Assembly (NCBI RefSeq): GCF_003711515.1
Contig: NW_021167083.1
Coordinates: 2,758,201-2,822,200, forward strand
DNA from: Sodiomyces alkalinus F11
Lineage: Eukaryota; Ascomycota; Sordariomycetes; Glomerellales; Plectosphaerellaceae
Reading direction: 5' to 3'
Length of the DNA stretch: 64,000 nt
Numbering within the stretch: the stretch's first letter is position 1; every line of letters begins with the position of its first letter. Position numbers and translations under genes: made by a program. Of this stretch, positions 8,981 to 53,040 are shown piece by piece. Below the pieces are notes generated by a model. The model was not told the DNA's origin and did not search any database. It saw nothing but the letters and a program-made list of their open reading frames with translations.

Positions 8981-9269
8981 AACTTACGTGGGGGGACCTA
9001 CGTTTTACACGGAAACGCCCTAAACCACTCGAAACCTATATTAATCGAAGCTCTTTTTAAGTTCTATACGCCTATCTATGGCCCTGTATCGTGTAGGAGC
9101 TAGTCTAGGGGTAGAATGAGTGCGAAAACGCCTAGAAATAGGCTTGCGTCTGCCCCGCGTGCGGGGGAAAAGTCTAACATGGCCCGTGCGCCCACGCTGA
9201 TAAAGCAGCAAGCCTACCCGCACAGAGCCGCACCCACAATCTCCACGCAACCCCAACACTATAAATAAT

Positions 9270-10830
9270 AACCTACTAGCCATAACGCTAGCTATAAAAA
9301 CGCCTCTAAGGTCTCTAATGCCCCTAAACCGGCCCCAAGGCCCCTATAACTATAAAGGGCCTAGGGGAGGTAGCTATAGGTAATACCACTAAAAGTATAG
9401 AGGATTTACCCCTCGCTACGTCCTATAATTGGAAAAGGCACCTTAGCCCTTTTACACTAACTCCTAGACGTTTTTCTAGGCCCCGGATCGAATTCCCCTC
9501 GGACTCGGAGGCCGAAGGCGTTTTCGAAACGCTTTCTAGAGCCGCCCGCGCTAAAGACCCGAGCCTTTTAGGAACTAGATAGGCTAAAAAAGCACCCGGA
9601 ATGGCTAGAGCCTCGGGAAAACCCTTAGTTACGCGCTAGATGTGGACTAGTTCGGCTAGTAAAGTATAGGCTAAGGAACTACTTAAATAGGCTCTTTAGC
9701 TACTTTAATAGGCCTATTACCCTCCACCCTGCCCCCTAGATCAAGGCCCTATTAGTAGGGCTTAAATCTGCTATTAACGGAGTACTAGAAGCCTCCTAGC
9801 CCCCTATACTCGAATTGAAAATTAACGAGCTAGCCTACGTAGTTCGTAGGCTTATAGAATAGCCTAAACTCCTTTATAGCGAGGCTTTAAAGGGGAAAAA
9901 AGGCCCTACCTAAGCCCCTACCCAGGCCCCTATTTTAGGGGCCTTAGCATCTTTAGCTCCTACCCCCCCGGCACCCCTACTAACCAACCCTAAAAAGGTT
10001 CCTAAGGTTATTCTTTAACCTATAGTAGGGGCCCGGCTTCCTAGGGAAGATTTTAACCCCCTCGAGCTCCGAAACAGGCTTAATAAGGCCTTAAAAACCC
10101 CTGTAGTTACGGCTGTTAGCCTATTAACTAATAGAAACCTTATTCTAACCCCGGGGCCGAAATACAGCGTTTAATAGCTCCTAGACTCGTAGAACCAGTG
10201 GTTTAAAAAGCTAAACCTGCCCCTCTAGCCCCCCTGGCCTATAGGCGACTAGTATAAGCTTATTATTAAATAAGTGCCTAGCAGACAGTTTAGGGGTGGC
10301 GATACCCTGATACCCGACCCCTCCAACCCCTCCGAACCACTATAAGAGGCCCTTAACCGAAGCCTATAATAGAGCCTAGATCTATTGGACCTAGTCACTA
10401 AATTCGACACCTTTAACCGTGTTAGGGTAGTAGGAAAGCCTTGGTGGCTATGGGCTCCGAACGCATTTTACGGCACGGTGGTTATTTCCGTGCCCACCAC
10501 TAAAGAACAGAAGTACTACCTGAAACAGGGGCTCTATATAGCCGGCTAGCGGCTAAAGGTCTATAAATATAAACCTATAATGTCCAGGACCTAGTACTCT
10601 AACTACTAGAAATTCGGGTATACCCGAGGGACTTATAAGGGCCTAGTTACCAACCCTATCTACGCTATCAAAGGACACAGGGAAGAATACCACTACTATA
10701 ACGAGTATAAAGAATACGGAGACTGCGAATATAAGACCTATAAGTACTATAACTACGAGGGAGAGCACCCTATCTATAGTAAAGACTACGAGATCTTTAA
10801 GCTATAAAACCCTAAATTCTATAAATAAAG
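9270..10830 (+). pseudogene. LINE F ORF1 (gag-like, zinc knuckles)
   Basis: A plus-strand frame with scattered TAA/TAG carries proline-rich sequence, then a segment near 10180-10600, and ends at about 10680-10800 with closely spaced Cys or Tyr residues (YHYYNEYKEYGDCEYKTYKY, then YNYEGEHPIYSKDYE). With Tyr restored to Cys in thought this is the CX2CX4HX4C arrangement of LINE ORF1 nucleic-acid-binding knuckles. TGC-to-TAC changes are what RIP on the other strand produces. Exact ends are uncertain. Confidence 0.7.
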
Positions 10831-10834
10831 GGCC

Positions 10835-12702
10835 TTTTAGTTCTAAAGATATCCGGTTTATTTAATATAACGTCGATAAACAGGCCCTGGTATAGGAAGC
10901 TATCCTAGAATAGGCTTTAGAAGCTTCGACTGATATAGTCCTTATCCAGGAACCTGCCTACGTCTCGAAACTAGAAGGGTAGTTTATTCGGAACCACCCT
11001 GCTTTCTATACCGTTACACCTATATCCTAAAAACCCTAAGTTTTCCTTATTAAGCCTAGGGTCCTTACTTATATAGGAAAGGGCTCTAGGATCGACTTTT
11101 TATACCCCGACGACCTTCTAGAAGATATAGACGCGTAGAGTATAGAGCTTTATTATCTATAGACCTTTTATATTCTACACGTTTATAATTACCTAGAATA
11201 GGACCCCGAAACAATAGGCCGAGGGTGCCCCCTAGCCCTACCCTTTCTACCTCTTCCAGTTTTACTTCTTCTTCTTCTTTTCCCTCTTTTTCAGGCCCTA
11301 GAATCCGGCTCTGGTCCGGCGATCGAGTGCTATAAGGCCTATAGGTCCCTAAGTCTACCCTTATTTTAGTGGACTTTAACAGGAACTACTGGCAGTGGAA
11401 CGGGGCTGCTACTAACCAGGCTTTTATTAGGACCTAGGCCCTAGTAGACTAGTTAGATAGCCGCGGAGCTACCTGTTTAGTAGATTCTGAAGAGGTTAAC
11501 CTGAACGGCCGGACTTTTTTTAGGTCTAATCTTCGTTAAGAGTCGGTTATAGACCTCGCCTTTTACACGCCCGGCTTTGATCGTCTTCGCTTCGATAAGT
11601 GGGAATATATCGATAATATTACCTCCCTATACCGCGCTATTCTACTTTTAGCTTCCGTTTTAGGCTCCGAAGGTCCTATAAATAAATCGCTTCCGCCGGC
11701 TTATGACTATAAGCTAGCAGATTAGGACCTATGTTCTAGTACCCTAAAGAGCCTAGAACCTAGCCTTAATTAGCAGCTTCGATAGGCTATCGACTCTTAA
11801 ACTAACTGTATAGGCTACTATCTTTCGGATACGATTACCCTCGCGCTTAGGGCTTTAGTGCCTGAGTTAAAGATAGTAGAGTGTTTAAACCTGTGGTGGA
11901 CGAAGGAGCTAAAAGCCCTACGAAAAATATCTGGCAGGGCTTTTAGGGTATTTCGAAAGACGGCTAGAAAGGGGGCCTTGGCTACCCGACTAGCGTTTTT
12001 AGAAGCCTCCTAGAAAGAAGCTCGAAACCCCTATAAAGCAAAAGGCCTACGCCTTCGAAGATAAAAATAACCCCCTACTTTAGACCGTTTTTCTAGCACC
12101 CTCCGCTACCGATATCCCCGAAGCCCCTGTATTTATAGGCCCTGCGGGGGACTTAGACCCCTCCTACCCCTTTAGCGGTCCCTAGAGCCTAACTAGATTA
12201 CGTAGTAAGGGCCTTAGAGGACCGTGGGAGTGGCCTAGCCTATAGGTTATAGAGCTATAACGCGCGACCTTCAGAGCTGCTAAAGGCAAGGCCCCTGGAC
12301 CTAATAGAATAGGCCTAAAACCGATCCAAGAGGCCTATAAGGCTATTTCCGGGTTCTTTTTATAGGCCTACTTAGCACTCTTTTCCGTAGGATATTACCC
12401 TGTCTGCTAGAAAGAAGCCCTCGAGGTTATTCTGCCGAAGCCAGGGAAGAAGGACTATTTAGACCCTAAGTCTTATAGGATTATAGCCCTTCTAAACTAT
12501 TTAGGTAAAGTACTCGAACGGGTTATAGCAACTAGGCTTAGCTTTCTATCTAATACCCGCGACGAACTTTTATACCCTAGTTAAATAAGGGGTAGGAAAT
12601 AACGCTCCGCTATCGATACGGCCCTTCTCCTCCTTCACTATATTAAGAAATAGCGTAAAGTATACTAAATTTTAGTAGTTTCTACGCTGTTTTTAGATAT
12701 TA
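10835..12702 (+). pseudogene. LINE F ORF2, first part (endonuclease and RT start)
   Basis: The frame opens with I.YNVDKQAL and DIVLIQEPAYVS, the start of the apurinic-endonuclease-like domain of Tad1 LINEs (NVxK...IxAIQEP). DFNRNYWQWNG (about 11370) is its central motif, and VIDLAFYTPGF (about 11550) is its end. The RT begins with LPKPGKKDYLDPKSYR-like sequence (about 12430) and RLSFLSN..., then the frame stops at LFLDI, where LINE D inserted. The conserved next residues (K.AFDYIARP) lie at 50650. Stops are TAG/TAA at Gln/Trp codons. Confidence 0.88.
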
Positions 12703-13607
12703 CTATTAATATTATTATTAATCTTACTCCGCTATCCTAACTAATCTATAGGAGCCTTCCTAGGCTATGCGGTCTTTCTCGGGTAGCTATAGAGGGGAAA
12801 ACCCGGGGAAAACCCGGGGAAAACCTCTATATACTTTCTTAGGTAGAGAGATGCCGCTATAAGGCCGCTATAGCCCCGGTTTATCCCTATTATATATCTG
12901 GATCTTACCTTTAGGCTAGTAGCTAACGGGAAGTGTGGTAGGCTAGTAGTTAGGTAAGTTAGCCTAAGCTAATCTTTATCGGTGGAGCGGGGGCCGAGGG
13001 GGCGTTACCGCGTTTCCGCTATACGGCGGCTACGGCTTTTTATCCTCGGTCTCCCTACGTCCGTTAAGGATTATGCCTTTTATTCCTTCTATTCGGTTAA
13101 TAAAAAGAGTAGGGGAGGTAGGCGCCTCCTACCTCCCCTAGGTAGGTAGGTAAGGGGATAGGGCCCTACTCTATTATAAGAATTAGATAGTTAATATCCC
13201 CCGAGGCCTTTATACCTTAAATATCCCTTTTCCTCCTATAACACTAGCGAGTTTATTTTAGGTTTTCCTCCCGATCTATTCCCGCTTATAGTCCTATCGG
13301 CTTATCGTTCCGACTTATACTAACTAGTAAACCCTTTTAGTTTTCTTATCGTATTCCTATTATAGTTTTACTATAAGTGTCTCGTGGGTAGCGTTGTGGT
13401 AGCGTAGTGGCGTGGGATTAACTAGGTAGTATAGTATTGATTTATATATATAAATAAGTCATTAATAGTGGTAGTATAATATAAGTTCTTTTCGTGGCGT
13501 AGCGGTGCCTTAGTAGTAGCGTGCTAATAATCGTAGATATTATCTCCTAATAATAATAATACTACTAAGAATAACCGCTATTACGAGTATAGCGTAGTTC
13601 GTGTTAT
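12703..13607 (-). mobile_element. LINE D copy 1, segment 1 (3' tail and 3' UTR)
   Basis: LINE D lies on the minus strand, so its 3' end is on the left. The segment begins with an ATT-rich tail and matches 33145-34065 of LINE D copy 2 (shared cttactccgctatcct, and ggaaaacccgggg-type repeats). It is broken at 13607 by Gypsy B. The 16-bp duplication bordering the whole element is at 12687-12702 and 50635-50650. The remaining pieces are 28821-28831, 41781-44640 and 47906-50634, about 6.5 kb in all. Confidence 0.9.
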
Positions 13608-13965
13608 TAATACACCCCAGATTCCACCGGGAATACCAGGGCGTACCACGGGGTACCCTAGCGGTACTATAGTATAAGCCGTGGCACCCACGGGGTATAC
13701 TATAGGTACCTTTAGGGTATACTATAGCCTCCTTAGGGTACGATTAGTGAATGCCGGGGAATCCCCCGGGTTCCTATACATAGAAACCGAGGATTCTACG
13801 GGGTTTACCCGTGGATACTTAAGTCCAGGGGGCGCGCCCCCTTAGGTTAGATAGATTATCTTTATTACACCTCTTTTACTATAGTAAAGGTCACCCTTTA
13901 AATCCTGGGTTCCCTAGGTCTGATAGTACTAGCTAGCTAGAGTTATACCCGGATAGGGTATATTA
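13608..13965 (+). repeat. Gypsy B 5' LTR
   Basis: It begins TAATACACCCCAG and ends GGGTATATTA, and aligns with 28466-28815. A second copy of the LTR end follows directly (13966-14031), so the LTR may be read as 358 or 424 bp. It contains imperfect ggtatac/ccgtgg units and a GC-rich palindrome (gggggcgcgccccc) at about 13828-13842. Confidence 0.85.
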
Positions 13966-14031
13966 AATCCTAGATCCGTCTAAGTCCTATAATACTAGCT
14001 AGCTAGAGTTATACCCGGATAGGATATATTA
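13966..14031 (+). repeat. Tandem duplication of the LTR end
   Basis: Positions 13900-13965 and 13966-14031 carry the same end block (actagctagctagagttata, then cccggatagg and atatta). The 3' LTR at 28466-28815 has it once. The duplication probably arose in the 5' LTR after insertion. Confidence 0.7.
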
Positions 14032-14699
14032 AATAGTAGTAACTAATACTTTTAGATAAGGTTCGCCTACTACTATCTAGTATAACCTATAAGGACCGCG
14101 ACTATATAGACTACGCGGGTTTTCTAGCGAACCCGCTAGCGCGCTAGGCGAAGACGCCTCCCCTTTACTAGGCCTAGGCGTAAAGTATATAAGGAATCCA
14201 CGGTCGCTAGTTATAGTATAGAAAAGGCGACTTACCGACCTATACTAAAGCACCTACTATACATCCCTAGCTTCGATAGTATAACCGATATAAACCTTCC
14301 TAATAATCGTCCTCCCCTCCCGCGAAATATAAGGGGAGCCTAACCTCTCCTAAAGTTTAGTAAGGACTACCTATACCTTATAGAAAACGTTTTCCTCCTA
14401 GAGTAAATCACGCTACTCGTTATCCTCCGATCGGCTATAAATATACCGGGGAACCCTAAAGCTAGTAGCGTAATAACCCTAAAGGGAAGAGTGTAGAAGC
14501 TAGTTATTATACTAGAGGGCGTGTATCCGAAGATCTAGGTAACTAATCCTAGTCGTTTCGCCGTAGCATTCGAAAAATAGCTTATCTATAAGCCGAAATA
14601 CCGGGAGATCTTAGTAAGCTTAGATAGAATCGATAAGAAGAAGGGTAAGTAAGTCGCTAAAGCGCTTACTATTAGTTCGTTATCGCCGACTACCTCGGA

Positions 14700-16400
14700 T
14701 AAGCTAAAGGACGGACTAGCGGAATATAGTCTAACCGGGATAAGTCCTACTAGACCTATCTCCGCTATACCCTTCGCTAATTAAATAGCTATAGCAGGAC
14801 CTAATAGGTTATTACTCGACTTAGCGGCTTTAGGTAAACCTCTGTTTAGTTATATAGAACCGACCACGCTCCCTATCTATTCTACTATAAAGATAAAGGA
14901 TAAGGAACCTACTATTAAGGAAGAGGAACTAATATACTCCCTAATCGCGCTTTCTCGGCCGACTACCCGGTTAATACTAAGAGTATAGCGTTTAGTATAG
15001 GCGTACCCGGACCTAGCCACGCTAACGCCTGCTAGGACTGCGGACTACCTGATAAAACGCCTCCTCCTCCAGCGCCGACCTAACCGCCCCCTACGGGCAG
15101 AGACTAAACGTATATATGCTAATCCGACTTACTCGTTATTATCGGAGAGCTTTAGCGCGGATTATAGCCGTAATAGTCCTAGGTCCGCTTTAAGGCGGAT
15201 AACCTCGGATATTTCGACCCGCCAGAGTATTTTACCGTTACTTAAGACGATGGCATGGAAAGAACTAAGCTTATCTTCCTCGATATATTACGTTTCACGG
15301 ACGCTATAGAATAGTATACTAGTATAAGCCCCGGGTATCGCGAAGCCCTTATACACGGTATCTTCTATTACCTCTTAGGAGAAGCCTCTAAATAGTTAAT
15401 GACTATAAACCTTAGACTTTATAAGTAGTATAGTAAGAAAGCTACTCTAAAGGATTAGAAAGACGGTCTAAAAAGCTAATTCCGGCTCCTGCGCGAAGAA
15501 GCCGAGTATAGACTATATAAGGAAAGATATACCGTAAAAAACGTCGTAAACCGCTATAATATCCGCGTATTCGCTAATAGAGTAATCCGACTTATTAAGG
15601 CCTTGAATAAACCTAAGGAAAAGTAAGCCGACTTTATAAACTCCCTGGCTAACCTTATACTAGAGTAGTACCGGAACTATACCTAAGGTATATAAAAGTA
15701 TTATATTAACTAATATAGCCTAGCCAGGGTTAACTAAGGAACCCGCGGATCTTATAGTTCTATACCGCCTATCGTAGTAATATAGTAACCCGTTCTAAAG
15801 TACTATAACCGCCGGTCTAGTCCTATACCCGAGCGATATCGTATACTATAGCCGGACCGCTATTCCCCTAGCCCTAACTAATTCCGTCACTAAAGCGAGA
15901 ACCGCGCCCTGCCTACGCCTAATACTAACCGCTTTACTAATAATAAGGGTTAACGACTCCTAACTTATACCGCTAACGAATAATCTAACCGTCGATACGG
16001 GGACCGTCCTAGGGACCGCCCCTAAGACTAGGTAAATGCCTCCGCTAAAAAGACCGCCGCGGAACCTATATCCGGAGATAATACTAATATAAAGCCTAAG
16101 AACGAGTACTACCACGCCGAGATAGACTCCGAGGGTTCTATAGATTCCGAGGATAATAGTAGCGCGGGTAACGGATAGAGTAATTAACTATACTAGGTCG
16201 CTAATAGACCCGGATTCGTACCTAAGTATTCTAATCTCTACTAGGTACGCCGATAGTATAGTAAATACTATTAACCTATAAGATCTAATAATAAGACCCT
16301 TTAAAATAAGAAGAAATACGCCTAGCTATACCGACTAGCAGCGTAGGATAAATAGGACTCGACGCTAATTTATAGTGCCTTCTAGGAAGTAAAGGATCTA
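14700..16400 (+). pseudogene. Gypsy B gag remnant
   Basis: From about 15240 a frame reads FLDILRFTDAIEQY and YLLGEASKQLM, then LEQYRNYTQGIQKYYI near 15660. This resembles the retrotransposon gag matrix/capsid segment of fungal Gypsy elements. A polar Pro/Arg/Asn-rich tail follows to about 16350. A zinc knuckle is not clear. Stops are again TAA/TAG. The true start is not visible because the upstream 14040-14700 frames are heavily broken. Confidence 0.6.
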
Positions 16401-16429
16401 TTTAGCGAACCTTATAACTATATATACAC

Positions 16430-18061
16430 CTAGATCTAGGCCTATAGCACGCTAATAGGCGCGCTATTCGGAATTTACGTTAACTCGGGAGCCTCCCGCT
16501 ACGTAGTAAGCTAGCACCTCCTAAGTCGATTCCCTGATAAGTAGGTTAATCCTACTAAGTAGGCTATGCTATATAGCATAGGATCGATAAAAACCCTAGG
16601 ATAGGCTACCTTTACCGTACTAGTCTATAGTATAGTAGGTAATAACACGAAGATCGGCCGACTATATATCAGAGCCTAGGTAGTTCCGAGGCTTAACGCC
16701 GGTCTCCTCCTCGGATAAGAATTTAACTACCTAAACGGCCTAGATATTCTTAATATATAGGACGTTATCCGAATTAGAGTATACTAGGACCTTTTTCTAC
16801 TAGCTCGAGTATTCGCTAAGCGCTCCCCGATCCGGGGGAAGATTAAAGCTACCGGAAAGACCGTGATTCCTCTGCGGTAATATAGGTATATACCTATCTA
16901 GAAACCCGATATTAACCTTATATCTATAAAGTTCTCCCCGGATATTAAGGGTTCCCCGAATTATCTCCTTAACGACTAGAGTATAGTATTAATCTTTAAT
17001 ATAAGTAACCGCCTAATAGTTATTCCTAAAGGTATTAGGCTAGGATATATCGAACTATTTTATGCTAACGGATACTTCTATATTAAATAAGATAACGCCC
17101 GGGATATCCTAATAAAGCGATTGAAGACCGTAAAGCCACCGGCGGATAAAATAACCGGTAATATTTTCCGGGGGTATATAATATCTAAGGGTAAACTCGG
17201 TATCGCTAAAAGCCCTAACGCTTTTACTTAAACTATTAAGGAAGGCGTAATAATCTACTACTGCGAGGCTAAGGTTATCCGCTATTTCGCTAAGATTATA
17301 GAAAAGTACCCTAAGGTTTAGACCGACTAAGGCGTTATCGATATATCCTATAAGGAATATATACGGATTCTATTAGTTAACGGATAGTATAACTAGAAGA
17401 TTAGCTAAAAGGTATACCCGCTTAGTCGTGATAATAAGCAGTTCTTAGATAAGACCCTTAATAGGCTATACTAGTAGGGACATATAGAATAGCTGATATA
17501 ACCCACGCCCTTTAAAGCGCCCGTGTTTATTATATAGCGTACTATAAATAGTAAGCATAAGGACCGGATAGTAGTCGATCTCCGTGCTCTAAATAAAGTT
17601 ATTATCCCCGATATATACCCTATACCTCTATAAGACGAGGTTATCCGGTATCTCCGTAGAAAGAAGTTTATTTCCGTGGTAGATACTAGGGCGTTTTTTT
17701 ATTACCGTATTAAGAACGGTTTACTATCGTTTTATACCGGGGATAAGAGCGCTCTAAGGTTACCCTAATAGGTTTTTATAATTCCCTAGTATATATCTAA
17801 TAGTATATAGATAAGCTCCTCCGCCCGTATAAAAGCTTCGCCGCCGCTTTTATTAATAATATCGTGATCGTTTCGGATTCCGAGGATAAGCACGCCGGCC
17901 ACCTAAATACTATATTAGCCCTATTTAACCGTAAAAGGATCTCTATCTCCTCTAATAAGTCCTTTATTGTATACCTATCGGTTTAGCTTTTAGGATTCGA
18001 GGTTAACGCCCTTAGCCTATTAAATATTAAGGAATATATAGCGGCGCTTTATAAGGTATTA
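16430..18061 (+). pseudogene. Gypsy B protease and reverse transcriptase remnant
   Basis: GIYVNSGASRYVV (about 16468) is the aspartic protease active site (DSGA expected; Asp is now Asn). RT motifs follow: KDRIVVDLRALNKV (about 17550), PIPLQDEVI, and FISVVDTRAFFYYR. FINN at 17849-17860 stands where FVDD is expected, both catalytic Asp now Asn by TpG-to-TpA changes. LLGFEVNALSL and EYIAALYKV lead to 18061, where unrelated DNA begins. The family is the fungal Gypsy type whose RT ends IAALSRI...LxxYLGLTGWL. Confidence 0.85.
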
Positions 18062-18410
18062 TAACTGGATGAAGACGTAGTGGCACCAGATCGTCAAGAC
18101 AAAGATCAGACAAAGAGGTCAATCCAGCGAAACCACGATGCATAACCAAAACATAACCAACACCGCTACAACCTTCAGCGAAGAAGTAGATCGGTAGTCA
18201 CTATTCTGATCAGGGCAACGCAAGTTAAACTGGCAAGATACCTCAAACGTAGAACAAGCAATTGCAAAAGAGGATGATGATTGTGTTTTTTTGTCCCTCA
18301 ATGGGGACGTCCCGAGCCTGTCCTTAATATACATATGGGCAGCGGATCCAGCGGCCTTGAAAGGGGGGTCATGTGACCGTCTGCCGAACCACTCCAACGC
18401 CGCATCTGCG
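18062..18410. other. RIP-free insertion inside the Gypsy B pol gene
   Basis: About 350 bp rich in CA and TG interrupt the RT frame between YKVL and PPKSLQTLE...ITGWL, which are adjacent in related elements. It holds ordinary-looking sequence (for example catatgggcagcgg and gtcatgtgacc) and no recognised gene. The edges show tataac (left) and gttata (right), a weak inverted pair, with GTAT next to both. That would suit a small non-autonomous DNA transposon, but it is only six bases. It could equally be captured host DNA. Confidence 0.6.
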
Positions 18411-20290: not shown

Positions 20291-20573
20291 TATCTAACTC
20301 GGCTAGGGATATAATCTACCTAATAAGCTATCTACTACGATTAGTTAGTAACAGATAGGCCCCTTTAAGATCTTAGAGTAAGTAACGCCGTTAGCGTACC
20401 GCTTTAACTTACCGGGTATAATAAACGTCTATCCGGTAATTAGTATCGCTTAATTACTACCGGCTAAGAACCTAAGTAAGGACCTATTCCCCGGATAGAA
20501 CGCTAAGGTAGGCCTGGTTAATACCGGCGATTAAGATAACGACTAATAGCGTAACCCGTATAAGCACTATAGG

Positions 20574-20766
20574 TGTTAGATACCATAGCCACCTTATCGG
20601 GGTATAACAAACTATATTATGTTAGACGTGTGGAGTACCTCGCTCCTATATATCCACCCTTATTTCCCCTGCTTTTTCCGTATAGTTAGATATCCCTACA
20701 AAGTATTATAAACTTCACTTAGATAAATACATATATAATTCCGCGTACCTTATTTATATTCTAATA
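20574..20766 (+). repeat. Copia C 5' LTR
   Basis: 193 bp. It aligns along its length with 26303-26493. Nearly all differences are C-to-T or G-to-A in CpA/TpG context, for example TTAGATACC here against TCAGATGCC in the 3' LTR. Confidence 0.92.
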
Positions 20767-20780
20767 GATATAAGCCCGGC
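20767..20780 (+). other. Copia C primer-binding-like site
   Basis: The sequence right after the LTR reads gatataagcccgg, sharing taagcccgg with the Copia A leader. It suits pairing with the anticodon arm of initiator tRNA-Met (GGGTTATGAGCCC expected; TGA is TAA after RIP), the half-tRNA priming known from Copia elements. The tRNA match is from memory and is an inference. Confidence 0.5.
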
Positions 20781-41360: not shown

Positions 41361-41500
41361 GGCGGATTTAGATCCCTTTTATGAGGGCGTTTTTCCCTTA
41401 ACTGTTAATTTTACAATAGAAAAGCTAAGAGCGTTTAGTTTAAACCGAAGCCTCTAATTAGTTAGTTAACCTAGGAAGACCCACCTTAACTAAGGGGGTG

Positions 41501-41775
41501 TATTGTATAGGCAGGACCACGACGTGGTCTATAGGGGATCTAGGGGGGATCCACTCCCTAACTAAGGGCTTCGGACCTCAGGCATCAGGATATAACAGGG
41601 GCGGATACCGGAAAAGACCGGATAGGATCCAAATAATATAGTACCTATAATAGAGTCTTCACCACCTAAAATTAAGGGCATAAAAGACTCACATAGATAT
41701 AACTTGATATAATACACACACACGAGATTTCTGCTCTACTAAGTTGATTATCCAAGTGCTATTTGACGTGCGATA
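41501..41775 (+). repeat. Copia A 3' LTR (copy 2)
   Basis: 275 bp, preceded by the polypurine tract aaggggg and followed by the duplication TATAG. It keeps more unmutated bases (gacgtggtc, aagttgatta) than its 5' partner. Confidence 0.95.
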
Positions 41776-44640
41776 TATAGGCCTTAGTAGCGTCGGAGTA
41801 GTATTATAGCGCTAATATAGGGTAGTTATATTCGTTATAGTAAGCGTCTAGGTATTTACCCCGATAACGTAGAGGCTTACGCTAATACTATAGTAATAGG
41901 CGTGGCCTATTACTAGTACGCTAATAGTCGCTATTTATATAAGAATATAAGTCGCCTCGGTGCTATAATAGTGCCGTATATACGTTAAGGTGGATATAGC
42001 TAATATCTTAATAAGTCCCCTCCGCTACTAAGAAGTAATAATAATGCCATATAGATATTTACTAAGCATACGTAGCGGTAAAGGCCGCTAATAATGCTAG
42101 TATCACTATTATAGGTATCCCCCTTCGGTGTCATAGTAGTCTTATACTAATAAGTTATAGGCTAAGGAGCGCCTAGGGATATCGTCCCGGTCTTTTAGCC
42201 GGGCCCTAAACCGGGCGTTACCTTCTAGTCATAGTCGCGGCGGTACCGCGCTAGTAAAGATATAGGACTTATCTTATTAGATAAGACACTTAGAGGGTAA
42301 AATAGATTTAATCTTAGCTTACCTTATAAATAGCTCCTTATTAGTCCCGCTACGGCTCCTTAGCGGTATTAGCTAGCTAACTAGACTTAGTAGGGTCTTA
42401 AGTATATTAAAAGTAGTGTTAGTGCCTCTGAGGGAGGTAATGATAATAAGACCTAGCCGGTACTATAATAGTACTATGTTAATACCGCTAGGGTCCTAGC
42501 TTATAGGGCCTTTATCCTAATAATTAATTAATTATCGTGCCGCCTTATCCTTACTTTAGTCCCGCTTCGGTGTCCCCAGTATCTTCGTAGGCCTCTCTAA
42601 CTTTAAGGGCCAGGCGAAAGTCCTCAAGTCTCTTCCGTTATAGGAACTATCTTATAGCTACCCCGGCTATAGCATTATATTTTAGTGCGTCGTATAAGTC
42701 TCCTCTAGTTACAAGTGGTCTCCTTAGTTACCTCCTAGTATTAGAGTACTACGTGCTCCGCTATTTCCGCCCCTCCGTCCCTATAAGGGCACCGCGGTAA
42801 TAGGAAGCCCGGTACCCTTATTTTAGCTAGGAATACTCGTAGGCCTAGTTTTTCTAATCTAATCTAGGTAAGTGCGGAGCTTTATAGCTTAAGGAGCCCT
42901 TTATATTTCCGGAGGGAGTATTATATTAAGGGGCGGCTTAGTACCGTTATAGCGTAGGTATAAGGCCGCTATACTTCCGCTTAGGCTTAACCCTATTCCC
43001 TTATAAGAGCTTTGCGCGGGGGCGAGGTTCTAGTCTAGGTTATTAGGGCGGTAAGCTATACTATCTATATACGGGCGGCGTAGGTCCTATAATACTAATT
43101 CGATATTATTAAGGCTTTTACCGCGGCGTATACTCCGGCTAATATCTTATCTTTAGTCCCTTTTTCTTATATCCGGAGGATCTTTTAGGCGCTTAGGCTG
43201 AAGAGGTATAGGTTAAGGGGGGAGATAAAGGTTTTTTTTTAAGGACTCTAACCGGTATAGCCCTATAGGCTCCGGCTATTAATCGGAGGTATCGGGTCTA
43301 TATCGCTATAAATACCGTTATAGTGCCTTACTAGGGACCGGCCCTTATCTTATAAATAGCTAAGGTGTAATAGGTAATTACTAGTTTTACTATTATAAGG
43401 TATAGTCTTTTTATATTTACGAAGCTATACCCTTACGCTATTATACTAAGCCTTCAAAGGGCGTATATTTATATAGCTAGTCGGCTTTTTAGCTTTTTAG
43501 CGTATCGCCGGAAGTCGGGTTTCCTATTAAGCTAGATGCTTAGGAGCCTTATTACCTCCGTTACCGGTATTAAAGTAATGTAAAGGGGGAGTAGGGTAAA
43601 GGAGGGTTAGCGTGATTTTGTGAAGGGGATATAAACGCACTTAGCTAGTTCGAACTATAGTTTACTCGCTATCTCCTAGTCTAGGTAAGTATACTATACG
43701 GCGGCGAGACGGTACTATATTTATACCTTTATTCTGCCAAAGGCGATAATATTCGTATTATTAGCGAATCCTGCTATTATTATTTTAAGGACCCTTTTTA
43801 GCTCCTTAAAAAGAGTAGAGATATAAAGGATAAAAAGGCTAAGGCAAATTAGGGAGCCTTATAGTATACCCCCGCGGAGGTGCCGCGGGGGGGCCGTTTT
43901 ACTATTAAGTAGTAGCTAGGCTATATAGTCTTAGAAGAAGCTATTAATTAGGGTAGTAAGCTATTAGGGGAATCCTTTCCTTTTAAGTACCTTAAGGAGG
44001 CGGGAGTAGGAGATAGTATTAATAGCGCCTTTAATATCTAGTTAGAGTATTGAAACGGTGCTACTATAGGCCTAGCTCGCCCTAACAGCCTCCGTGACTC
44101 TTTATCTTACTATCTTTGTACTCCGCCTAGTCCGGTTATTTATTTATCCTTCCGGGAGGAGCCGATACTCCTCCGCTATAGTAATAATATAGTCGGCTAG
44201 TATCCCCTTAAGGACTTTATCTATTTTATTAAGGAGTAATATCGGTTATTAGCCCTTTACTATCTTATAGTCGGCTAACGGCCGGCCTTCCTTCTTAAGG
44301 ACTACCACGGTAGCGTAATAATACCTCTTCGGGTAATAGCCCGCTTTAAGGTATACTATAAAGATAATACTTAGTCTTTAATATAAGAGAGGTCTATATA
44401 CTTTAAGGAGCCCTGCTAGGAGCCTATCGGGTCCTAGTACCGCCTAGGGTTGAGTCTTCTTAAGGCGCCCCTATATATTCGCTACAGTAATATCGTGGCA
44501 GATATCCTATCTATGGGGGAATTCCGCGCCTAGGGGCCTAAGGGTAGTAAGGAGGGGGGGTAGGAAGAACTTCCGGTTAAGGACTTTAGCTTTCTCCATA
44601 TATATAATAGCTAGGTTATCGTTATTATCTTAGCGTAGTA
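41776..44640 (-). mobile_element. LINE D copy 1, segment 3 (3' UTR part and RT region)
   Basis: Parallel to 34076-36966 of LINE D copy 2. Minus-strand RT remnants include the GSP-type motif near 43850 and the degraded Cys-rich C-terminus near 42760. It is interrupted at about 44640 by LINE E. RIP is at least as heavy as in copy 2. Confidence 0.88.
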
Positions 44641-44782
44641 TTATTATTATTATTTATTACTCTGCTCTCGCTTAGCTAAGCTAGGCTAGCCACCTAAGTA
44701 ATAGTCCTTCTCTAATTCTCGAGGGGAAACTGTTAATACATAAAAACCCTGCGCTCTCATTATATAGGTAAGTCTATCGTAT

Positions 44783-45082
44783 GTGGCCGCTACGGTATCG
44801 CTCCGCGGCCCTGTTTTTATCGCTATTCGAAAACCGGATCTCACCTCCGGGCTAATAGCTAATAGGGGTCGGCTAGTTAATTTAGTAGGTACCGTGTTAG
44901 TCTCACGCGCCCTCGGTACGCTATCGCTACGGTCCCTTACCGCCGTCCTTTCCTTTATTCCGGATCCGGCGAGGTTATTCTTCCCTCGCCGCAGCACCTT
45001 TTATGTCCTCCCTCCCTTCTATAAGGGGGGGGGTATACCTGCCCCCCCCCTTACTCCTTCCTTTATTTATTATTTATTCTAA
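44783..45082. other. Open but probably non-coding part of the LINE E 3' UTR
   Basis: Overlapping stop-free frames occur on both strands (103 codons minus, 99 codons plus). The DNA is less TpA-rich here. The predicted peptides show no motif, and the position, between the ORF2 stop and the tail, fits a 3' UTR. Confidence 0.4.
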
Positions 45083-46299
45083 AACCTCCTTTATATACCT
45101 ACTATTTAAAATAGCCCTTATTTAGTTATATACCTCCCTTACTCGCGCTATATAGGCTCTCCGGGGTAAGCGCTATAGTATAGGCCGGGCGTGGCTACTA
45201 TTCCCTAGAAGGCGTGGTGACTTATAGGGCTAATCTGCCGCTCCCTTTTCTTATAACCCTCCCTCTTTTCCTCTCTTTTCCTCCCTTCCTCTTTTCCTCC
45301 TTTAAGCTATCGTTCTTAAGGTAAGTTTTACGTGGTCGGTGCGATATAAGTACGGCCCTAGAATTCCTATACGGGATCCCCGGTACTATTCGACTATATA
45401 ATAGGGGATCTAATAGGGTCCCGGGTCGTGCTATCCTTACGCCGCCCTTACTCCGCTCCCGTAGCGCCCGCCTTAGTCTAACTCTCCTACCACTCTAGAT
45501 ACCTAGTAATAAGACCTCTATTACTAAAGGGGGAGCCGGTGCCGGCGCCTATAAGGGTAAAGGGCTGGCTATCCCCTAGCCTTCTACTATAAGTTCCCCG
45601 CTCTATTATCGTCGCGCCCGCTTTACGCCCCCGCTTTATATTCTAACCCGGTATAGTCCGCCGCTATCCCTACTATCCGCTTATCGCCCTACACCTTATA
45701 CGTTATATCTCTAGTATAAGATTACTAGGCTATACCCTACTAGAACTATCCTAGTATATAGTCCTATTATATTCCCGCTATACCCCCGCGGCGCCCCCGC
45801 TCTATACCGTATTTACTAACCCGACTTAGGAGCCGGCGCCCGTTATATTAAATATATTAATAGTAATCGTAATAGTAGCTACGACGCCCCGGTTTATCCC
45901 CGCTATGCCCTTACTACGCTCTTACTCCTTTAATCCTCCTATTAAGTCCCCCCCCCCTATAATAACGCCGCTACTACCCTTATCGCCGCTGCCGTCCCCG
46001 CGCCCCTATAGAGTTATAGTAGTAGCTACGCTCGTAACGGCGAGATATTAGAGCTTATCCTTACTTACCTTATAAGTTACCCCGCACTAACCCCGCGCCG
46101 ACCCCGCTACTAACGCGTATTATAAGGTATCCTTATCCCTTTATTGGGAGATCCTATAGCCTCGGCCACCGAGGATAAGGGTAAAGGTAAGGATAAGGTT
46201 ATCCTAGTAGATAGTAGAGCGATTAGCTCCGACGATAACAATAACGAGTCCAATAAGTATATAGATAAGGAGTAAACGTAGCGCGCCCGTAGCGTGGTT

Positions 46300-47900
46300 A
46301 TATAGCGGCTATTAATAAATATCTTACTCTCCTTTTACTTATTCCCTTTATAGTCGTCTTTACCTCCCTTCGTAGTCGTCTTTACCTCCCTATATCTATA
46401 CCCGAGGTTTTAGCGCTACGGGGGCTGTACTACGCCTCCGCTTTTAGTTATTATACTAGTCGGAAGTCTAGGAGGCGCCCGGTTTATAGGAACTACTTCG
46501 CGACCTTCCCCGCGGTCTCCTTACTCCGGAACGCTAAGAGCTAGTCCTGTTTTATTAGTAGGCGCGCCCGTATCGGCCGTGAGGCGCTTTTATATCTCTC
46601 TTAATATATCTCGGCACTATAACACGATATATTCCGCTATCTCCGGCCCTCCGTCGGCGTATTAGTAGCGCGGCGTTACCGCTTCCGGTATACCTTTTAT
46701 AAAGAGGAAGTAGCGAAGGCCTATTTTCTCTATTCGAATCTAGGTAAGGATAGAACTCTATAGTTTTATAAGGCCCTTATACTTCCTAAGTGCTATATAG
46801 TCGAATTAAGGTATCTACGCTATAGCCACGCTACTATATTAGCGTAGTAAGGTATGCTTTACCGGTACGCCTATTTCTCTTAAAGGCGTTAGGCTAATTC
46901 CCTCCCGAGGAGCTAGGACTTAACCTCTTACTTCTATACCCCCTAGGACTTTAGGTAGGGCCTAACCCCTCCCCCGCGTTTTCTACGCTACGTGGCCGCT
47001 TCGGCTACTTATCGCACCTAAAGTATCGCTTACTTTATCTAAGTATCCTTTACCCGTAGTACCGCTTATACGGTTAAGGCGTTATAGTATAAGTTAAGGG
47101 GGGGGACCCCCGCCTTTATCTTAATTACCTTCGTAGTAATAGCCCGATACACGCTGGTAACGATATATAGGTATTATATCTACTTACTAGCTAGTCCTTT
47201 AAGAACTCCGCTCGGCTTCTCCCCTTTTCTCGTTATTATATAGAAAGCCGGGGCCGCGTATAGTATAGCGCTCCGGACTACTATTTAGTATAGTTTACGC
47301 GTATCCCCGATATAGTAGCCCTATACTAACGCTATAAGGCATATAAGGGCGTATTTCTGGGTAAGGAGTTTAGCTTTAAGTTTCCTAATATAGGGACGGA
47401 ATATAAGCTTCTAGATAAGGATAACCCCTAGGACCTCTATCTCTTTAACTTATAGCGCCGGTACGCCCTCGAGGCGTAGCAGGAGCGGTAGCGGTTCTTA
47501 TTTTCTCGTAAAGTAAAAGAGCTCGTATTTCTGTGGCTTAAATCGTAGTCCGCTCCTCCGTAACTAGCTCTAGCAGACTTACTATACCCGTTTAAGGTAC
47601 GCCCGTAGTACGGCCTTATTACGTCTAAAGGCCACGATATTCGTGTTATCGGTAAAGCCGATTACCGCGACCCGCGGTATCCGGATTAGCTCTAGTAGAG
47701 CGTCCTAATAAATAGTATAAAGAGGATTAGGGAGAGGGGGGATCCTTAGGGGACTCCCGCCTGGATTTCTACCTAGTGCGCCGTGTCGCCATCGAAGCGT
47801 AGGCGCGCCGTGCGCGCTATAAGGTATGACTGGGTCTCTTAGTGTAGTAGCGGTACCGATAAGGGGTTTAGCGGTACTCCCGTTTTTATTTATACCCATT
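46300..47900 (-). pseudogene. LINE E ORF2 remnant (RT and C-terminal region)
   Basis: On the minus strand about 47740-47680 reads GVP.GSPLSPILFILF, a LINE RT motif 4. GFTDNTNIVAFR follows near 47640 as the catalytic (F/Y)ADDT motif with Asp changed to Asn. A Cys-rich C-terminus (ALLYADGGPEIAEYIVLQC) lies near 46620. The endonuclease and ORF1 are missing, so this is a 5' truncation typical of LINE insertion. Confidence 0.75.
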
Positions 47901-47905
47901 TCTAT

Positions 47906-50634
47906 AATCGCTAGAGGAGGTTATTATTCTTCTTAGTCTTATATAGTAGGTGCCGCTAATATAGTCGCTTCGCTACCGCTACGGCCTTATCGCGGCGCCT
48001 CTCCGCTTCCTAGAACTTATCCTATTAGTTCCGGGACTTTCTAGACATATATCTACTATAAAGGCGCCTTACTTCCTAGGTAAGAGGGGTTAGCTCCGCG
48101 TTTTACTAAGGGGTAGGTAGGAGTCCGGGGGTGCCCCCGCGGTAATATAGTATAGCCTTATCGGCTAGGGTTATAAGGTTCTTAATTAGGTTATTTAGTA
48201 GTAAGTCGATATTACTTAGTATTATAAGGGGACCGGTCTACTAGAGTTACGTGGTAGCGAGCTAGGGGACTTATAAGGGGTTAAAGTCCTTCTAGACCTA
48301 ATAGAGCCCGCCTAGGTCCTGTGGTAGTATTATTTTAGTGTCCGCCGCGGTATTTATCTTTATATAGATTCGGGCTATCTATAAGTAATAGTCCGACCCG
48401 ATAATAGTCTTATCGGGGCCGCTAAGGTGGTAGCGGAGCCTTTATATCGCCTATATAAGGTTAATAATACTAGCACGCTAACCTAGGCGGTGCTAGGTAG
48501 TAGTTCCGGGGGAGTTATTAGGTCTAGGTTTTACCTAGTTATAAGGGTAAGCAGAGTATTAGCCCGGGGGTAGTATTATAGTAGCTATAACTATAAGGGG
48601 TGGTATAGGTTAAAGCCTCCTATACGGACGTGGCGGCCCTATAGCAGTACTATATCGAATATATCTTATAGGGGTGTATTCTAGCGGATCCTGGCTAACT
48701 AGTAGTTCTCTAAGTAGATTCACTAGATTATAAGGGCCTTATCTCCGGTCCTAAATATAACCGTGTAGGTATTATAGTAAGCCCGCTATATCTATATATA
48801 TAGCGGGTATCTTTTATAGATATATAGTAGGGCGCGGCCCCCTCCTTAGATTAGCCGTTATACCCTTTAGGAGGGGTAGGCAGGGCTTTTCGTGAAAGGG
48901 TTAAGGCCGGGTTCCCATTATATTATACTTGGCGTGGTATCAAAGCGGGAGCTCCCGCCACGCCTGACTCCTCTCTATATTCTATAAAAGGATATAGATT
49001 CATATTAGTTAGTAGGGGGGGGGGGTTAAGATAATATACCCGGTATAACCGGGGTCTAGCTCTAGGGTTCCTACTACGGTAACTTATTAGTCCCGCGGGG
49101 GACTATATAAGCGCTTATTAGGCCCGGTACCGGGGAGCCCTCCTATTCTCTAGTCCTTTTCGGGGGTTATCCTCTACCCCTATAAAGGGGTTAGTCCTAG
49201 TCCTAGGCGATAATAATAGGGGGGAAGATCTACGGCTACCGCGGGTATACCGCTTTAGTTTAGCGGGTAATATTAAAGTCCCTGGCTTAGTACTTATATA
49301 CTTCGCGGGTTTTCTTAGCCTTTTTCCTTAATAGTCGGTATAAATTATTAAAGGTATTGTAATCTCCGGTGTATACGGTATAGCGGCAGGGGCGCCCGGG
49401 CGCCGTAGCGTTATAGTATCCTAGACCTTATAGATACGCCGATTCTAGCTTAGCGTAGTAGCGGTATACCCTCTCTACCACGGGGTAGCTATTAGCCCTA
49501 TAGCCGAAGTATAGGTATTTATAGTACCTTAGGGGGCTAAGGTTAGGATTATATAGTTTATAGATATAGCTACCCCCCTTAAAGAGGAGGGTATTCCGAA
49601 TAAGGCTTACTATCCTTTCCGTCGAAGCCGATTCGATAAGGAGAAACACTACCCTACCGGTGCCGTGGCGGGGTACTTATTATTATACGCGGAGGATATT
49701 TATCTCGGGGTTTATATTTTATAAGGATATTAGTAGGTCTTTTTCGGAAAGCGTATTAAGGACCTCCTTTGGGATAGTCTTCGCGAGTATAGGATAAGTG
49801 TATACGGCTAGGGTAGCTCCTTTACTAAAGGTCTTCTTAACCTATTATTTCTTATAAGTGGCCTATTACTATACTCCTTTAATAAAGGTAAGGTAGATAT
49901 CTTTACTAGGCAGTTTCCGTGCCGCTATAGTATCGTGTCGCGTAGTCGTGGTATTTATAGCTTAAATAATTTCCTTTAGAGTCCTGGCCCTAAGGGGCTA
50001 GTCTTCGGGGAGGGTTCCTTAGCAGACAATTAGTTTCTAGTAATACTTAGCGGGGATTACTTTAGGGGCGGCGGGGTCCCGCGGCGGTGCCGCCGCGGGG
50101 GCTTAGGCTATAATATTAGCCTAGGTCTTTTTTATATTGTTTATCCCTTTTCGGAGTTCCTCTCGGATAATATAGTAGATAGATACGTATAGGAATATTA
50201 GTAGTAGCGTGCCGGCGTTATTACGGGTACTATGTATCGTGATTAATTCCTTTACTAGCTCTATGACCTGCTTAATCGTGTTCCTATTAGCTAGTAAGGC
50301 CTGAATTTCTGCCTTAATCTTAGCTATTCTTAGTTCCGGGGGGCGCGGTAGCCCCCTTTCGGTCTTATATCAGTTCCGCGCTATTTCCTGCCTTAGGGGG
50401 GGGGGCGCTTATATTACGAAAGGTGGGTCCGTTAGGAATTCTATATAGTCGAGGTCAGGATAACGCTATCCTATAACTCTTCCGGCTATAGAGTAGTGCC
50501 GGTATTACGGTACCGCTATAATAGTATCCCGGGAGGGAGGCAGTAGCTATAATCTCTATCTCGGTGGTTTTATCGATTGTACTCTTATTACGCGCCCGTG
50601 GTTGATGGGCGTGTCGAAATCCGGTCGTGTGTGT
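47906..50634 (-). mobile_element. LINE D copy 1, segment 4 (ORF2 start, ORF1, 5' UTR)
   Basis: Parallel to about 37030-39752 of LINE D copy 2. It ends at 50634, where the 16-bp duplication ctgtttttagatatta (50635-50650) starts and LINE F resumes. Confidence 0.9.
49020..50450 (-). pseudogene. LINE D copy 1 ORF1 remnant
   Basis: A stop-free minus-strand stretch at 49428-49649 reads LRYYKYLYFGYRANSYPV and ERVYRYYAKLES: the two zinc knuckles with Cys/His changed to Tyr. The rest parallels copy 2 (38150-39580). It cannot bind zinc as encoded. Confidence 0.75.
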
Positions 50635-53040
50635 CTGTTTTTAGATATTAAAAGAGCCTTCGATTATATCGCCCGCCCCTAGCTACTTAGGACCTTTTAA
50701 GGACTCTAACTACCCTTAAACCTAGTTAAATAGGTAGCCTCTTTTACAGAAAATAGACGTATTTAATTAGCCTTCGAGGGGTAGGTTTAATAGCCTACCC
50801 CCCTAAATATAGGGGTTTTATAAGGCTCTCCGGTTTCTCCTATCCTATTCCTGAATTATATTAGGAAGGTTATAGCGGGACCCGATTTTCAGAGTCTTTG
50901 GCTCTTCTATATCGACGATTTTTAGCTATCTATAGCGTCTACGTCAACTAGGAAAAACTTTCAAACCCTTAAAAAAGCCGTAGCCTCTCTTTTCGACGTA
51001 GTAAAAGTTAACTAAGTCCTTTTCGACCACCGAAAAACAGAGCTTATTCACTTCTATCAAAGACGCTCTAAAGAAGACGCCCCTATTACTATAGGGGGGT
51101 ATGTACTTAAACCTACGCTAGGTGCTATTAGGTGACTAGGGGTCTAGTTTAATCCTAAACTATCCTTTGAGCCCCACGCCGAAAAACGCCTAAACTTAGC
51201 TTTAGCAGCCCTAAACAGGTTATATAGGCTAGCTAGCTCGTAGAGGGGCCTTTCTTTTAAGGCCCTAAGGCAGCTATATATAGTCTATATCGTATTATTA
51301 GCTGATGTTAGCTTATAGCTCTGGTAGGACTCTAAATCCTCGAAAAAACACCTCGTGGACCGCCTAGAACGTCTATAATACGGCGCTCTTGTTAGGGCCC
51401 TGGGTGCCTTTAGGGGGGCCCCTTTGCGGCCTCTAGAACTCGAAGGAGCAGTGACCCTAGCGGGGGTTCGGTTAACTAGGTCTAATAGGCTTTATGCCTT
51501 TAGGACCTTAAAGTTCCTACCCAACTACTCTATTAAACGCTAGCTCCTAGGCAGTGAAAACCACCTCGCCTAGTTATAGAACCTACTACCTACTATATAA
51601 CTACACAGGCTAGGCCTAGAAATAGTGGCTTTAGCAGGTTAGTCTTAGGATATTAAGGGTCCTTCGGCTAGGTGGGAGGCCCCCTGGGCTTCGGAACCTA
51701 TAGCGGATCTAAGACCCTTTTTCTCTAAAGACCGGCCTATAATAGCTACCGACCCTAACCCTGGCCCTAAAACCCTTGTTTAAACAATAGCTTACCTCGA
51801 AGCCCGCGCTGAAATATAATAAAACCTAGGCGAATAGGCCGCTGTTTTCTATACCGACGGATCCCTAGGCTATCCTATAAGGCTCTTTATAGGGCCCCCG
51901 TAGGCTATAGCCGCTATAATATAGTGGACTAAGACCGGAAGGCCCTGTAAGGCTATAGGCTTTAACCTAGGGTCCGCTGCCGAAGTCGCGGACGCTAAAT
52001 TATACGCTATCCTTTAGGCCCTCCACGCTGCCCTAGAGCAGACGCCTAGGCCCCTGGAGTACTATATTTTCAGCGATTCACAGGCGGCTATTTAGAAGCT
52101 TTAGCGCACCTTATAGTAGGCTATAGAAGCTAAACCCCTTATCTTACGCCTTAAATAACTAGGCATTTCGGTTTCTGTATAGTAGTGCCCCTTATAGATA
52201 GGGATAGAGGGTAACGAACCAGCGGATAAAGTGGCTAAAAGGGCGTTAAACCCTAAAAAGGCTACTAAATCCGTTAGCTTAGTTACCCTTAGCCACCTGA
52301 AACGCCGGGTAAATTAAGCCCTTATTTAAGACTAGAAAACTCTATAGAATAACGAAGAGAAGACGGAAAAAAGAGGTAAATCGGTTCGATTAAGCCGCCT
52401 ATATAGGCGCCTAGTCCGCGATAACCTCCGTTTCTCTCAAAAACCACTACGAATATAACGTCTTAGGGAGGTAAAATAGGCTTTTACGTAGTTAAAACCC
52501 GGCTTCGGATACCTAAAAACCCACTAAAAAAGGACCTAAAAATACGGTAATGACCGCTTTTCCTATCCCGGCTCCTCTATACAGGATATAGTATACCTTA
52601 TTCTCTCCTGTCCTTTTTATAAAAACGAACGAAAAGCCCTACGAGAAAACCTAGTAGGCTAACCGCTATCTTTACCGCTGTTATTCGGTACTAAAAGAGG
52701 AATACAGGCCTTATAGGCCTATCTTTTAGCTGCTAAAATAGCCTTGGCGGAGTGGTATAGGGCGTAAACCATAAGTCCTGCGGTCTAGTTATTTTGCTTT
52801 GGTTTTTTACCTATTAGGTCTATTAGGCAGACTATTATAGAGGATTTCCTTTGTTATTACTACGCCTTATTTTACTATACCTAGCTTCTGATAGCCTTTG
52901 GCCCTTAGGGCGATAGACTCCGCGCTATAGCTTTAGGGCTGTATACGCGTAATGAATTAAACAAAAACCCCTTCTATCACGATGCCGAAGCAATAGAATA
53001 TAGAAGTTAGCTACCTTACTTTACCTTACCCACCTTATAT
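50635..53040 (+). mobile_element. LINE F copy 1, 3' segment
   Basis: It continues LINE F from 12702 after LINE D copy 1. The similarity shared with LINE F copy 2 (57428-58245) ends near 53000-53040, taken as the 3' end. No tail of simple repeats is obvious. A target duplication with the left flank near 8985 was looked for and not found. Confidence 0.85.
50640..53010 (+). pseudogene. LINE F ORF2, second part (RT, RNase H, C-terminus)
   Basis: Opens with LFLDIKRAFDYIARP, the continuation of RT motif A. GVLQGSPVSPILF (about 50815) and intact YIDD at 50908-50919 follow. LGAIRQLGVQFNPKLSF (51118) is the RT end. RNase H shows FYTDGSLGYP (51848) and IFSDSQAAI (52070), with the expected Glu apparently Lys in ADAKLYAI (51990). 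PL.IGIEGNEPADKVAKRAL (52190-52250) is the RNase H end. A Cys-rich tail with ILSCPFYKNERKAL follows at 52600. The frame is long and well preserved, with only TAG/TAA at Gln codons. Confidence 0.9.

What the first reader, a model, noticed from the sequence alone, without database searches (positions are those of the whole stretch)
8986..53040. A Russian-doll nest of at least seven retroelements whose order can be read from target duplications
LINE F is split by LINE D copy 1 (16-bp duplication). That is split by Gypsy B (GTTAT), Copia A copy 2 (TATAG) and LINE E. Gypsy B is split by Copia C (ATAGG) and by a small RIP-free segment. Copia A copy 2 is split by LINE D copy 2 (gtaggtagta). Each outer frame resumes in register: LINE F ORF2 stops at LFLDI and restarts at LFLDIKRAFDY. 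Removing the inserts gives sensible lengths (F 6.1 kb, D 6.5 and 6.6 kb, Gypsy B 8.9 kb, Copia C 5.9 kb).
Basis: seen in the sequence. Interest (0 to 1): 0.75.

Follow-up and report, generated by a model that had tools for sequence, protein, structure and literature searches.

The report
Eight nested retroelements between two genes
A stretch of fungal DNA between two ordinary genes holds eight dead jumping elements inserted one inside another, four layers deep; the order of insertion can partly be read, but such nests are already well known in fungi.

Summary
In a 43.4-Mb fungal assembly, LINE F (about 8970-52967) is split by LINE D1. D1 is split by Gypsy B, Copia A2 and LINE E. Gypsy B is split by Copia C and by a short segment, and Copia A2 by LINE D2: eight elements in four layers. 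Each of these seven insertions also has an uninterrupted relative: 24 of 24 fetched LINE F copies, 24 of 24 Gypsy B copies (Copia C site), 5 of 5 Gypsy B copies (short segment), and D2 and Copia A1 in the window. The 'small RIP-free segment' is a 359-bp solo LTR of another LTR family. Corrections: LINE F ends near 52967, not 53040; F has no convincing duplication of its own; only a partial order can be read; RIP severity does not follow the layers. Random insertion into a small intergenic block reproduces such a nest (37% of runs; depth four commonest). Nested clusters of this size and depth, and solo LTRs that escape RIP, are both in print. Ordinary: a well-resolved new example of a known kind.

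The parts
8970..12702 (+). LINE F, 5' part (endonuclease and start of reverse transcriptase); outermost element, layer 1
   Evidence: In one search the matches of 29 of 39 other listed copies begin at 8966-8970 (the other 10 at 8963-8996); Exo_endo_phos_2 E=3.1e-4 and RVT_1 profile 3-67 E=0.0031, both under the curated cut-off
12687..12702 (.). 16-bp target duplication of LINE D1, left copy (right copy 50635-50650)
   Evidence: 24 of 24 fetched LINE F copies contiguous with 12-16 bp overlap, exactly 16 in 17 of 24
12703..50634 (-). LINE D1, layer 2, in pieces 12703-13607, 28821-28831, 41781-44640, 47850-50634; simple-repeat tail at the left end
   Evidence: Collinear with D2; empty sites in D2
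13608..28815 (+). Gypsy B, layer 3, LTRs 13608-13968 and 28465-28815, TSD GTTAT
   Evidence: RVT_1 just over the cut-off; RNase H, Integrase_H2C2 and Tf2-1-like SH3 downstream, each slightly under its cut-off
18060..18418 (+). Solo LTR of another LTR family ('G'), layer 4, TSD GTAT
   Evidence: 246 first-look candidates, 40 scored; ends and flanks of 24 copies; 5 of 5 fetched Gypsy B copies lack it
20574..26493 (+). Copia C, layer 4, LTRs 20574-20766 and 26303-26493, TSD ATAGG
   Evidence: 24 of 24 fetched Gypsy B copies lack it; SH3_retrovirus over and RVT_2 under the cut-off
28832..41775 (+). Copia A2, layer 3, LTRs 28832-29106 and 41501-41775, TSD TATAG
   Evidence: RVT_2 E=2e-22 after the D2 insert; SH3_retrovirus before it, slightly under its cut-off
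33145..39752 (-). LINE D2, uninterrupted, layer 4, TSD GTAGGTAGTA; also the empty-site comparator for D1
   Evidence: Copia A1 (992-4761) is its empty site
44641..47836 (-). LINE E, most likely 5'-truncated (only the last part of RT seen), layer 3, 13-bp TSD 44628-44640/47837-47849
   Evidence: D2 shows the empty site (gap 2 bp, as expected with one duplication); no Pfam match in six frames
50635..52967 (+). LINE F, 3' part (rest of RT and A-rich 3' end)
   Evidence: RVT_1 profile 71-194, E=1.1e-8; 3' boundary from 39 other listed copies and two copies read

Best explanation
This is an ordinary nested cluster of retroelements in the intergenic space between two host genes, in a fungus with RIP. 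Each element arrived by its own normal route: target-primed reverse transcription for LINEs F, D1, D2 and E (10- to 16-bp duplications for D1, D2 and E; A-rich or simple-repeat tails), and integrase-mediated insertion for Gypsy B, Copia A2, Copia C and the G element (4- to 5-bp duplications; LTR ends TG...CA, of which six of eight termini now read TA, as RIP would leave them). Element G later lost its inside by LTR-LTR recombination, leaving a solo LTR. RIP then mutated CpA to TpA in everything long. Shown: layout, duplications, empty sites, most element classes, CpA loss. Inferred: the transposition and recombination steps, the class of E, and that insertions in neighbouring genes were lost by selection.
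For: Self-comparison. Seven duplications at exact positions. Empty sites: 24/24 LINE F copies, 24/24 Gypsy B copies at the Copia C site, 5/5 Gypsy B copies at the solo-LTR site, D2 and Copia A1 in the window. RT, RNase H, integrase zinc-binding and Copia RT domains, several of them under the curated cut-offs. RIP signature: (CA+TG)/(AC+GT) of 0.19-0.41 in the element bodies against 1.19 and 1.31 in the flanking gene stretches. LTR transversions 7/350 in Gypsy B, 1/276 in Copia A2, 0/192 in Copia C, in the direction expected if Gypsy B is older than Copia C inside it (Fisher p=0.055). Random insertion gives an all-nested result in 37% of runs and depth four in 53% of those, for 2.4 kb of other DNA.
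Against: LINE F, the base of the nest, has no convincing target duplication: the best is an 8-bp match that starts 85 bp beyond its 3' end. Its left neighbour is a truncated Copia A piece and its right neighbour is DNA with only two weak matches elsewhere, so one flank may have been lost. RIP severity does not increase outwards (F 0.41, D 0.22-0.24, E 0.20; unmutated base composition not controlled for). The transversion order rests on few changes. LINE E has no Pfam match. No sequencing reads were available.
Confidence: 0.95

Rival explanations
1. Assembly artefact: repeats from elsewhere were joined wrongly, giving a false nest.
For: LINE F, LINE E, Gypsy B and LTR family G are repeats with 75 to 264 first-look candidates each, 40 scored; LINE D, Copia A and Copia C were not searched genome-wide as DNA. 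No reads were available.
Against: Seven insertions each have a matching duplication and an uninterrupted relative in register; a misjoin does not create duplications. The copies compared within the window differ by 7% to 24%, which makes collapse unlikely.
Confidence: 0.03
2. Targeted nesting: the elements integrate preferentially into RIP-mutated heterochromatin, so the nest reflects targeting rather than chance plus selection against gene hits.
For: Seven of eight insertions landed inside other elements; targeting is known for some LTR elements such as Ty5 (passage of PMC4522978). In the simulation the all-nested result becomes rare if much other DNA was open to insertion (6% at 8 kb, 0.4% at 20 kb).
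Against: Random insertion into a block with 2.4 kb of other DNA reproduces it in 37% of runs, with depth four most common. No integrase chromodomain was seen in Gypsy B (weak evidence, as the frames are full of stops).
Confidence: 0.12
3. The short RIP-free segment is an independent short mobile element (MITE or SINE-like) that moves below the RIP length limit, not a recombination product.
For: Many copies (246 first-look candidates); the three least mutated of the copies read are all unattached.
Against: 19 of 24 classified copies, the window's included, are attached on one side to a shared internal sequence, as 5' or 3' LTRs are (13 and 6); ends TGTAAC...GTTACA with 4-bp duplications fit an LTR. 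Against certainty: the internal sequence gave only one weak, uninformative Pfam match (DUF7708, E=0.026).
Confidence: 0.1

Closest known systems
Nested TE clusters of Zymoseptoria tritici (Mycosphaerella graminicola), PMC4522978 (abstract, passages and section 8 seen)
   Same: 78 nested clusters of 7.5-63 kb with 2-7 different elements each, LTR and non-LTR elements inserted in one another, duplications verified in 35 of 49 clusters with an LTR base; a 47-kb cluster holds only class I elements; one cluster of Table 4 has three bracket levels inside its base element; lower GC in the repeats and a RIP-like mechanism.
   Different: Here the base is a LINE, and eight elements of seven families are placed, with an empty-site comparison for each of the seven inserts. 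The species is not identified.
Solo LTRs of crapaud in the Podospora anserina complex, PMC10787394 (start of abstract and passages seen)
   Same: [quoted passage not shown] the authors propose LTR-LTR recombination before RIP, or gene conversion.
   Different: Another LTR family; here only 5 solo and 19 attached copies were compared, from a biased sample.
Non-LTR (Tad1/I-like), Ty3/gypsy and Ty1/copia elements of filamentous ascomycetes (recalled)
   Same: Domain content and duplication lengths fit these groups.
   Different: No clade assignment by tree was made, and no repeat library was on hand.

Membership tests
Nested TE cluster | A base element interrupted by others, each insert flanked by a target duplication and absent from other copies of its host element | tested here: met
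   Seven inserts, seven duplications, empty sites for all seven
LINE (D1, D2) | RVT_1 reverse transcriptase, no LTRs, variable-length target duplications, simple-repeat 3' tail | tested here: met
   RVT_1 in D2 in two frames, one of them over the cut-off; D1 collinear with D2; 16- and 10-bp duplications; (TTA)n-like tails
LINE (F) | Endonuclease and RVT_1 reverse transcriptase, A-rich tail | tested here: met
   RVT_1 over the cut-off after the insert; endonuclease and first part of RVT_1 under their cut-offs; A-rich end
LINE (F) | Its own target duplication | tested here: inconclusive
   Best candidate 8 bp (TAACTATT, 8962 and 53053), away from the 3' end
LINE (E) | RVT_1 reverse transcriptase | tested here: inconclusive
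   No Pfam match in six frames; stop-masked frames show pieces resembling the RT of LINE D (G-V-P-x-G-S-P-L-S and F-T-D-N-T-N), motif recognised from recall; 13-bp duplication and (TTA)n tail fit
Ty3/gypsy (Gypsy B) | LTRs with 4-6 bp duplication; RT and RNase H before integrase | tested here: met
   LTR pair, GTTAT, RVT_1 29.8 bits against cut-off 29.6; RNase H then Integrase_H2C2 downstream, slightly under their cut-offs
Ty1/copia (Copia A, Copia C) | LTRs with 5-bp duplication; RVT_2 downstream of the integrase region | tested here: met
   RVT_2 (over the cut-off in Copia A2, under it in Copia C); retroviral-polymerase SH3 domain upstream, but the integrase core itself was not matched; TATAG and ATAGG
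Solo LTR (18060-18418) | One LTR with target duplication on both sides, while other copies flank an internal sequence | tested here: met
   GTAT duplication, 5/5 empty sites, 13 copies as 5' LTR and 6 as 3' LTR next to a shared internal sequence
Solo LTR (18060-18418) | Superfamily of the parent element | tested here: inconclusive
   Only one weak Pfam match (DUF7708, E=0.026) in about 1.5 kb of adjoining internal sequence from each of three loci

The most novel reading that the evidence does not exclude
In this fungus LTRs are systematically spared by RIP compared with the insides of their own elements, and solo LTRs are spared almost completely, so that many short unmutated LTR islands persist inside RIP-mutated nests, where they could seed recombination or keep promoter activity.
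Probability: 0.35. Interest if true: 0.35.

Novelty: new member of a known kind. Interest (0 to 1): 0.18.

Why it matters
The nest is a cleanly resolved record of how the space between two genes grew to about 46 kb by successive insertions, with an empty-site comparison for each of seven insertions. It suggests that nesting order and RIP severity are separate clocks: by the dinucleotide index the outermost LINE is the least mutated of the LINEs. As a phenomenon it is known; its value is as an annotation example and as a pointer to the RIP sparing of LTRs.

Tried and rejected
LINE E was first suspected of being a non-autonomous passenger, because Pfam gave nothing in six frames and pairs of matches lie mostly about 3.4 kb apart. 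Reading the frames with stops masked showed what looks like the end of a LINE RT, so that idea was dropped. RIP severity as an age clock was rejected. A duplication for LINE F was sought; the best candidate, TAACTATT at 8962 and 53053, starts 85 bp past the 3' end and no second A-rich tail is visible there, so it is left open. The idea that LINE F sits inside Copia A3 (7488-8953) was not supported: the DNA to the right of F (53041-53560) had only two weak matches elsewhere in the genome and no match to Copia A in the self-comparison. No tRNA (bacterial settings) and no Rfam family at gathering scores was found in the window. The species was not identified and no tree was built. Papers were searched; passages of four papers were seen and one section of one of them; PMC9910759 is not used.

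Full report
Setting. The window is C5:2758201-2822200 of a 43.4-Mb, 22-contig assembly. Two genes flank the nest: one with an SCA7 zinc-binding domain near 6.0 kb, and one with a transportin-3/importin-13 domain near 55.7 kb. The stretches taken for them (4900-7200 and 53560-57150; gene limits were not predicted) have (CA+TG)/(AC+GT) of 1.19 and 1.31 and GC of 0.51, while the element bodies between them have 0.19-0.41, the mark of CpA-to-TpA RIP.

Layout. Self-comparison and junction reading give: LINE F about 8970-12702 and 50635-52967; LINE D1 12703-50634 inside it; Gypsy B 13608-28815, Copia A2 28832-41775 and LINE E 44641-47836 inside D1; Copia C 20574-26493 and a 359-bp segment 18060-18418 inside Gypsy B; LINE D2 33145-39752 inside Copia A2. 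That is eight elements in four layers. Gypsy B and Copia A2 entered D1 only 11 bp apart, and their order cannot be read.

Duplications. Seven inserts have them: D1 16 bp, Gypsy B 5, Copia A2 5, Copia C 5, solo LTR 4, D2 10, E 13 with one C/T difference. The base element F has none that convinces.

Empty sites. In 24 of 24 other LINE F copies fetched (of 39 other matches listed, 186 first-look candidates) the two flanks of D1 are contiguous and overlap by 12-16 bp, exactly 16 in 17 of them, which is the duplication in single copy. In 24 of 24 other Gypsy B copies fetched (of 39 others listed, 78 candidates) the flanks of Copia C are contiguous: in 8 the aligned flanks abut or overlap; in 16 the right-hand alignment starts 29-50 bp further in, and the distance in the copy is only 7-9 bp longer than in the window without the insert. 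In 5 of 5 Gypsy B copies fetched (of 39 others listed) the short segment is missing: gap 2 bp in four; in the fifth the right-hand alignment starts 28 bases later with a gap of 30. LINE D2 is the empty site for the three inserts of D1: it carries GTTAT and TATAG once each between flanks 65 bp apart (67 expected), and at the E site the flanks lie 2 bp apart, as expected with one duplication. Copia A1 at 992-4761 is the empty site for D2 (flanks overlap by 9 bp).

Domains, read with stops masked and not across an insert: RVT_1 in D2 and in both parts of F, endonuclease in F; RVT_1, RNase H and integrase zinc-binding domain in that order in Gypsy B; RVT_2 in Copia A2 and Copia C. Several of these matches are under Pfam's curated cut-offs (first part of F, RNase H and integrase of Gypsy B, RVT_2 of Copia C), as expected for frames full of stops. 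In F the RT profile stops at position 67 before D1 and resumes at 71 after it, in the same frame. LINE E gave no Pfam match; masked frames show what looks like the end of an RT like that of D (motif recognised from recall), so it is most likely a 5'-truncated LINE.

The RIP-free segment. It matches a repeated family (246 first-look candidates, 40 scored). Of 24 further copies read, 13 are followed by one shared internal sequence (5' LTRs), 6 are preceded by another (3' LTRs), 4 have neither and show matching 4-bp flanks by eye, and 1 runs into N. The segment is therefore a solo LTR. Its RIP index is 1.18. Solo copies (5, the window's included) average 0.91 against 0.57 for 19 attached ones (one-sided Mann-Whitney p=0.005; without the window copy 0.84, p=0.016). 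Two of the five solo copies (0.68, 0.59) are no different from attached ones. The sample is biased: it holds the copies closest to the unmutated window copy. In 24 of 25 loci the LTR has a higher index than both flanks; in one of these the right flank is all N, and the exception is L051. Copia A, Copia C and Gypsy B LTRs are also less mutated than their insides, Gypsy B's only moderately so (0.36 against 0.19). PMC10787394 reports that RIP targets LTRs of full crapaud copies but largely spares solo or fragment copies (passages), and PMC3562529 states the RIP limits of 400 bp and 80% identity (passage).

Order and age. Transversions between LTR pairs, which RIP does not make, are 7 of 350 (Gypsy B), 1 of 276 (Copia A2) and 0 of 192 (Copia C). 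Fisher tests: Gypsy B against Copia C p=0.055, against Copia A2 p=0.084, against both p=0.024. This agrees with Gypsy B being older than the element inside it but is thin. RIP severity does not follow the layers.

Chance. In the simulation F comes first and the other seven arrive in random order at random points. With 2.4 kb of other DNA (about 1.7 kb to the left and 0.6 kb to the right of the nest) all seven fall within the nest in 37% of runs, and depth four is the commonest outcome (53% of those). With 1 kb of other DNA the figure is 65%, with 8 kb 6%, with 20 kb 0.4%. So no targeting is needed if the available space was small. Copia A2 was entered with 5.9 kb instead of about 6.3 kb.

Known or new. 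PMC4522978 (section 8) lists 78 nested clusters in one wheat pathogen, 7.5-63 kb, 2-7 different elements, with verified duplications, and its discussion names others in L. maculans, Epichloe, F. oxysporum, N. crassa and M. grisea (passage). The present nest is a new member of that kind.

Noticed in passing
window 4482-4756, 28832-29106, 41501-41775, 20574-20766, 26303-26493, 13608-13968, 28465-28815: LTRs of Copia A, Copia C and Gypsy B are less RIP-mutated than the insides of the same elements.
   Followed up: partly
window 20574-20766 and 26303-26493: The two LTRs of Copia C differ in RIP: of 16 RIP-type differences the mutated state is in the 5' LTR 14 times and in the 3' LTR twice.
   Followed up: partly
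window 1385-1823: Copia A1 carries about 440 bp absent from Copia A2 at the same place, including tandem 29-bp units near 1570-1815.
   Followed up: no
window 7488-8953: A truncated Copia A piece on the minus strand ends within about 16 bp of the start of LINE F; its other half was not found beyond LINE F.
   Followed up: partly
window 57432-58207: A second copy of LINE F's 3' end, without the 5' part, lies beyond the importin gene.
   Followed up: no
window 61342-61821: A further RVT_1 reverse transcriptase on the + strand with four TAG stops lies downstream of the nest.
   Followed up: no
window 53041-53560: AT-rich DNA (GC 0.28-0.30 from 53001 to 53500) with a RIP-like composition but only two weak matches (67-68%) elsewhere in the genome.
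   Followed up: partly
window 13898-14034: A tandem duplication of about 70 bp spans the end of the 5' LTR and the leader of Gypsy B.
   Followed up: no
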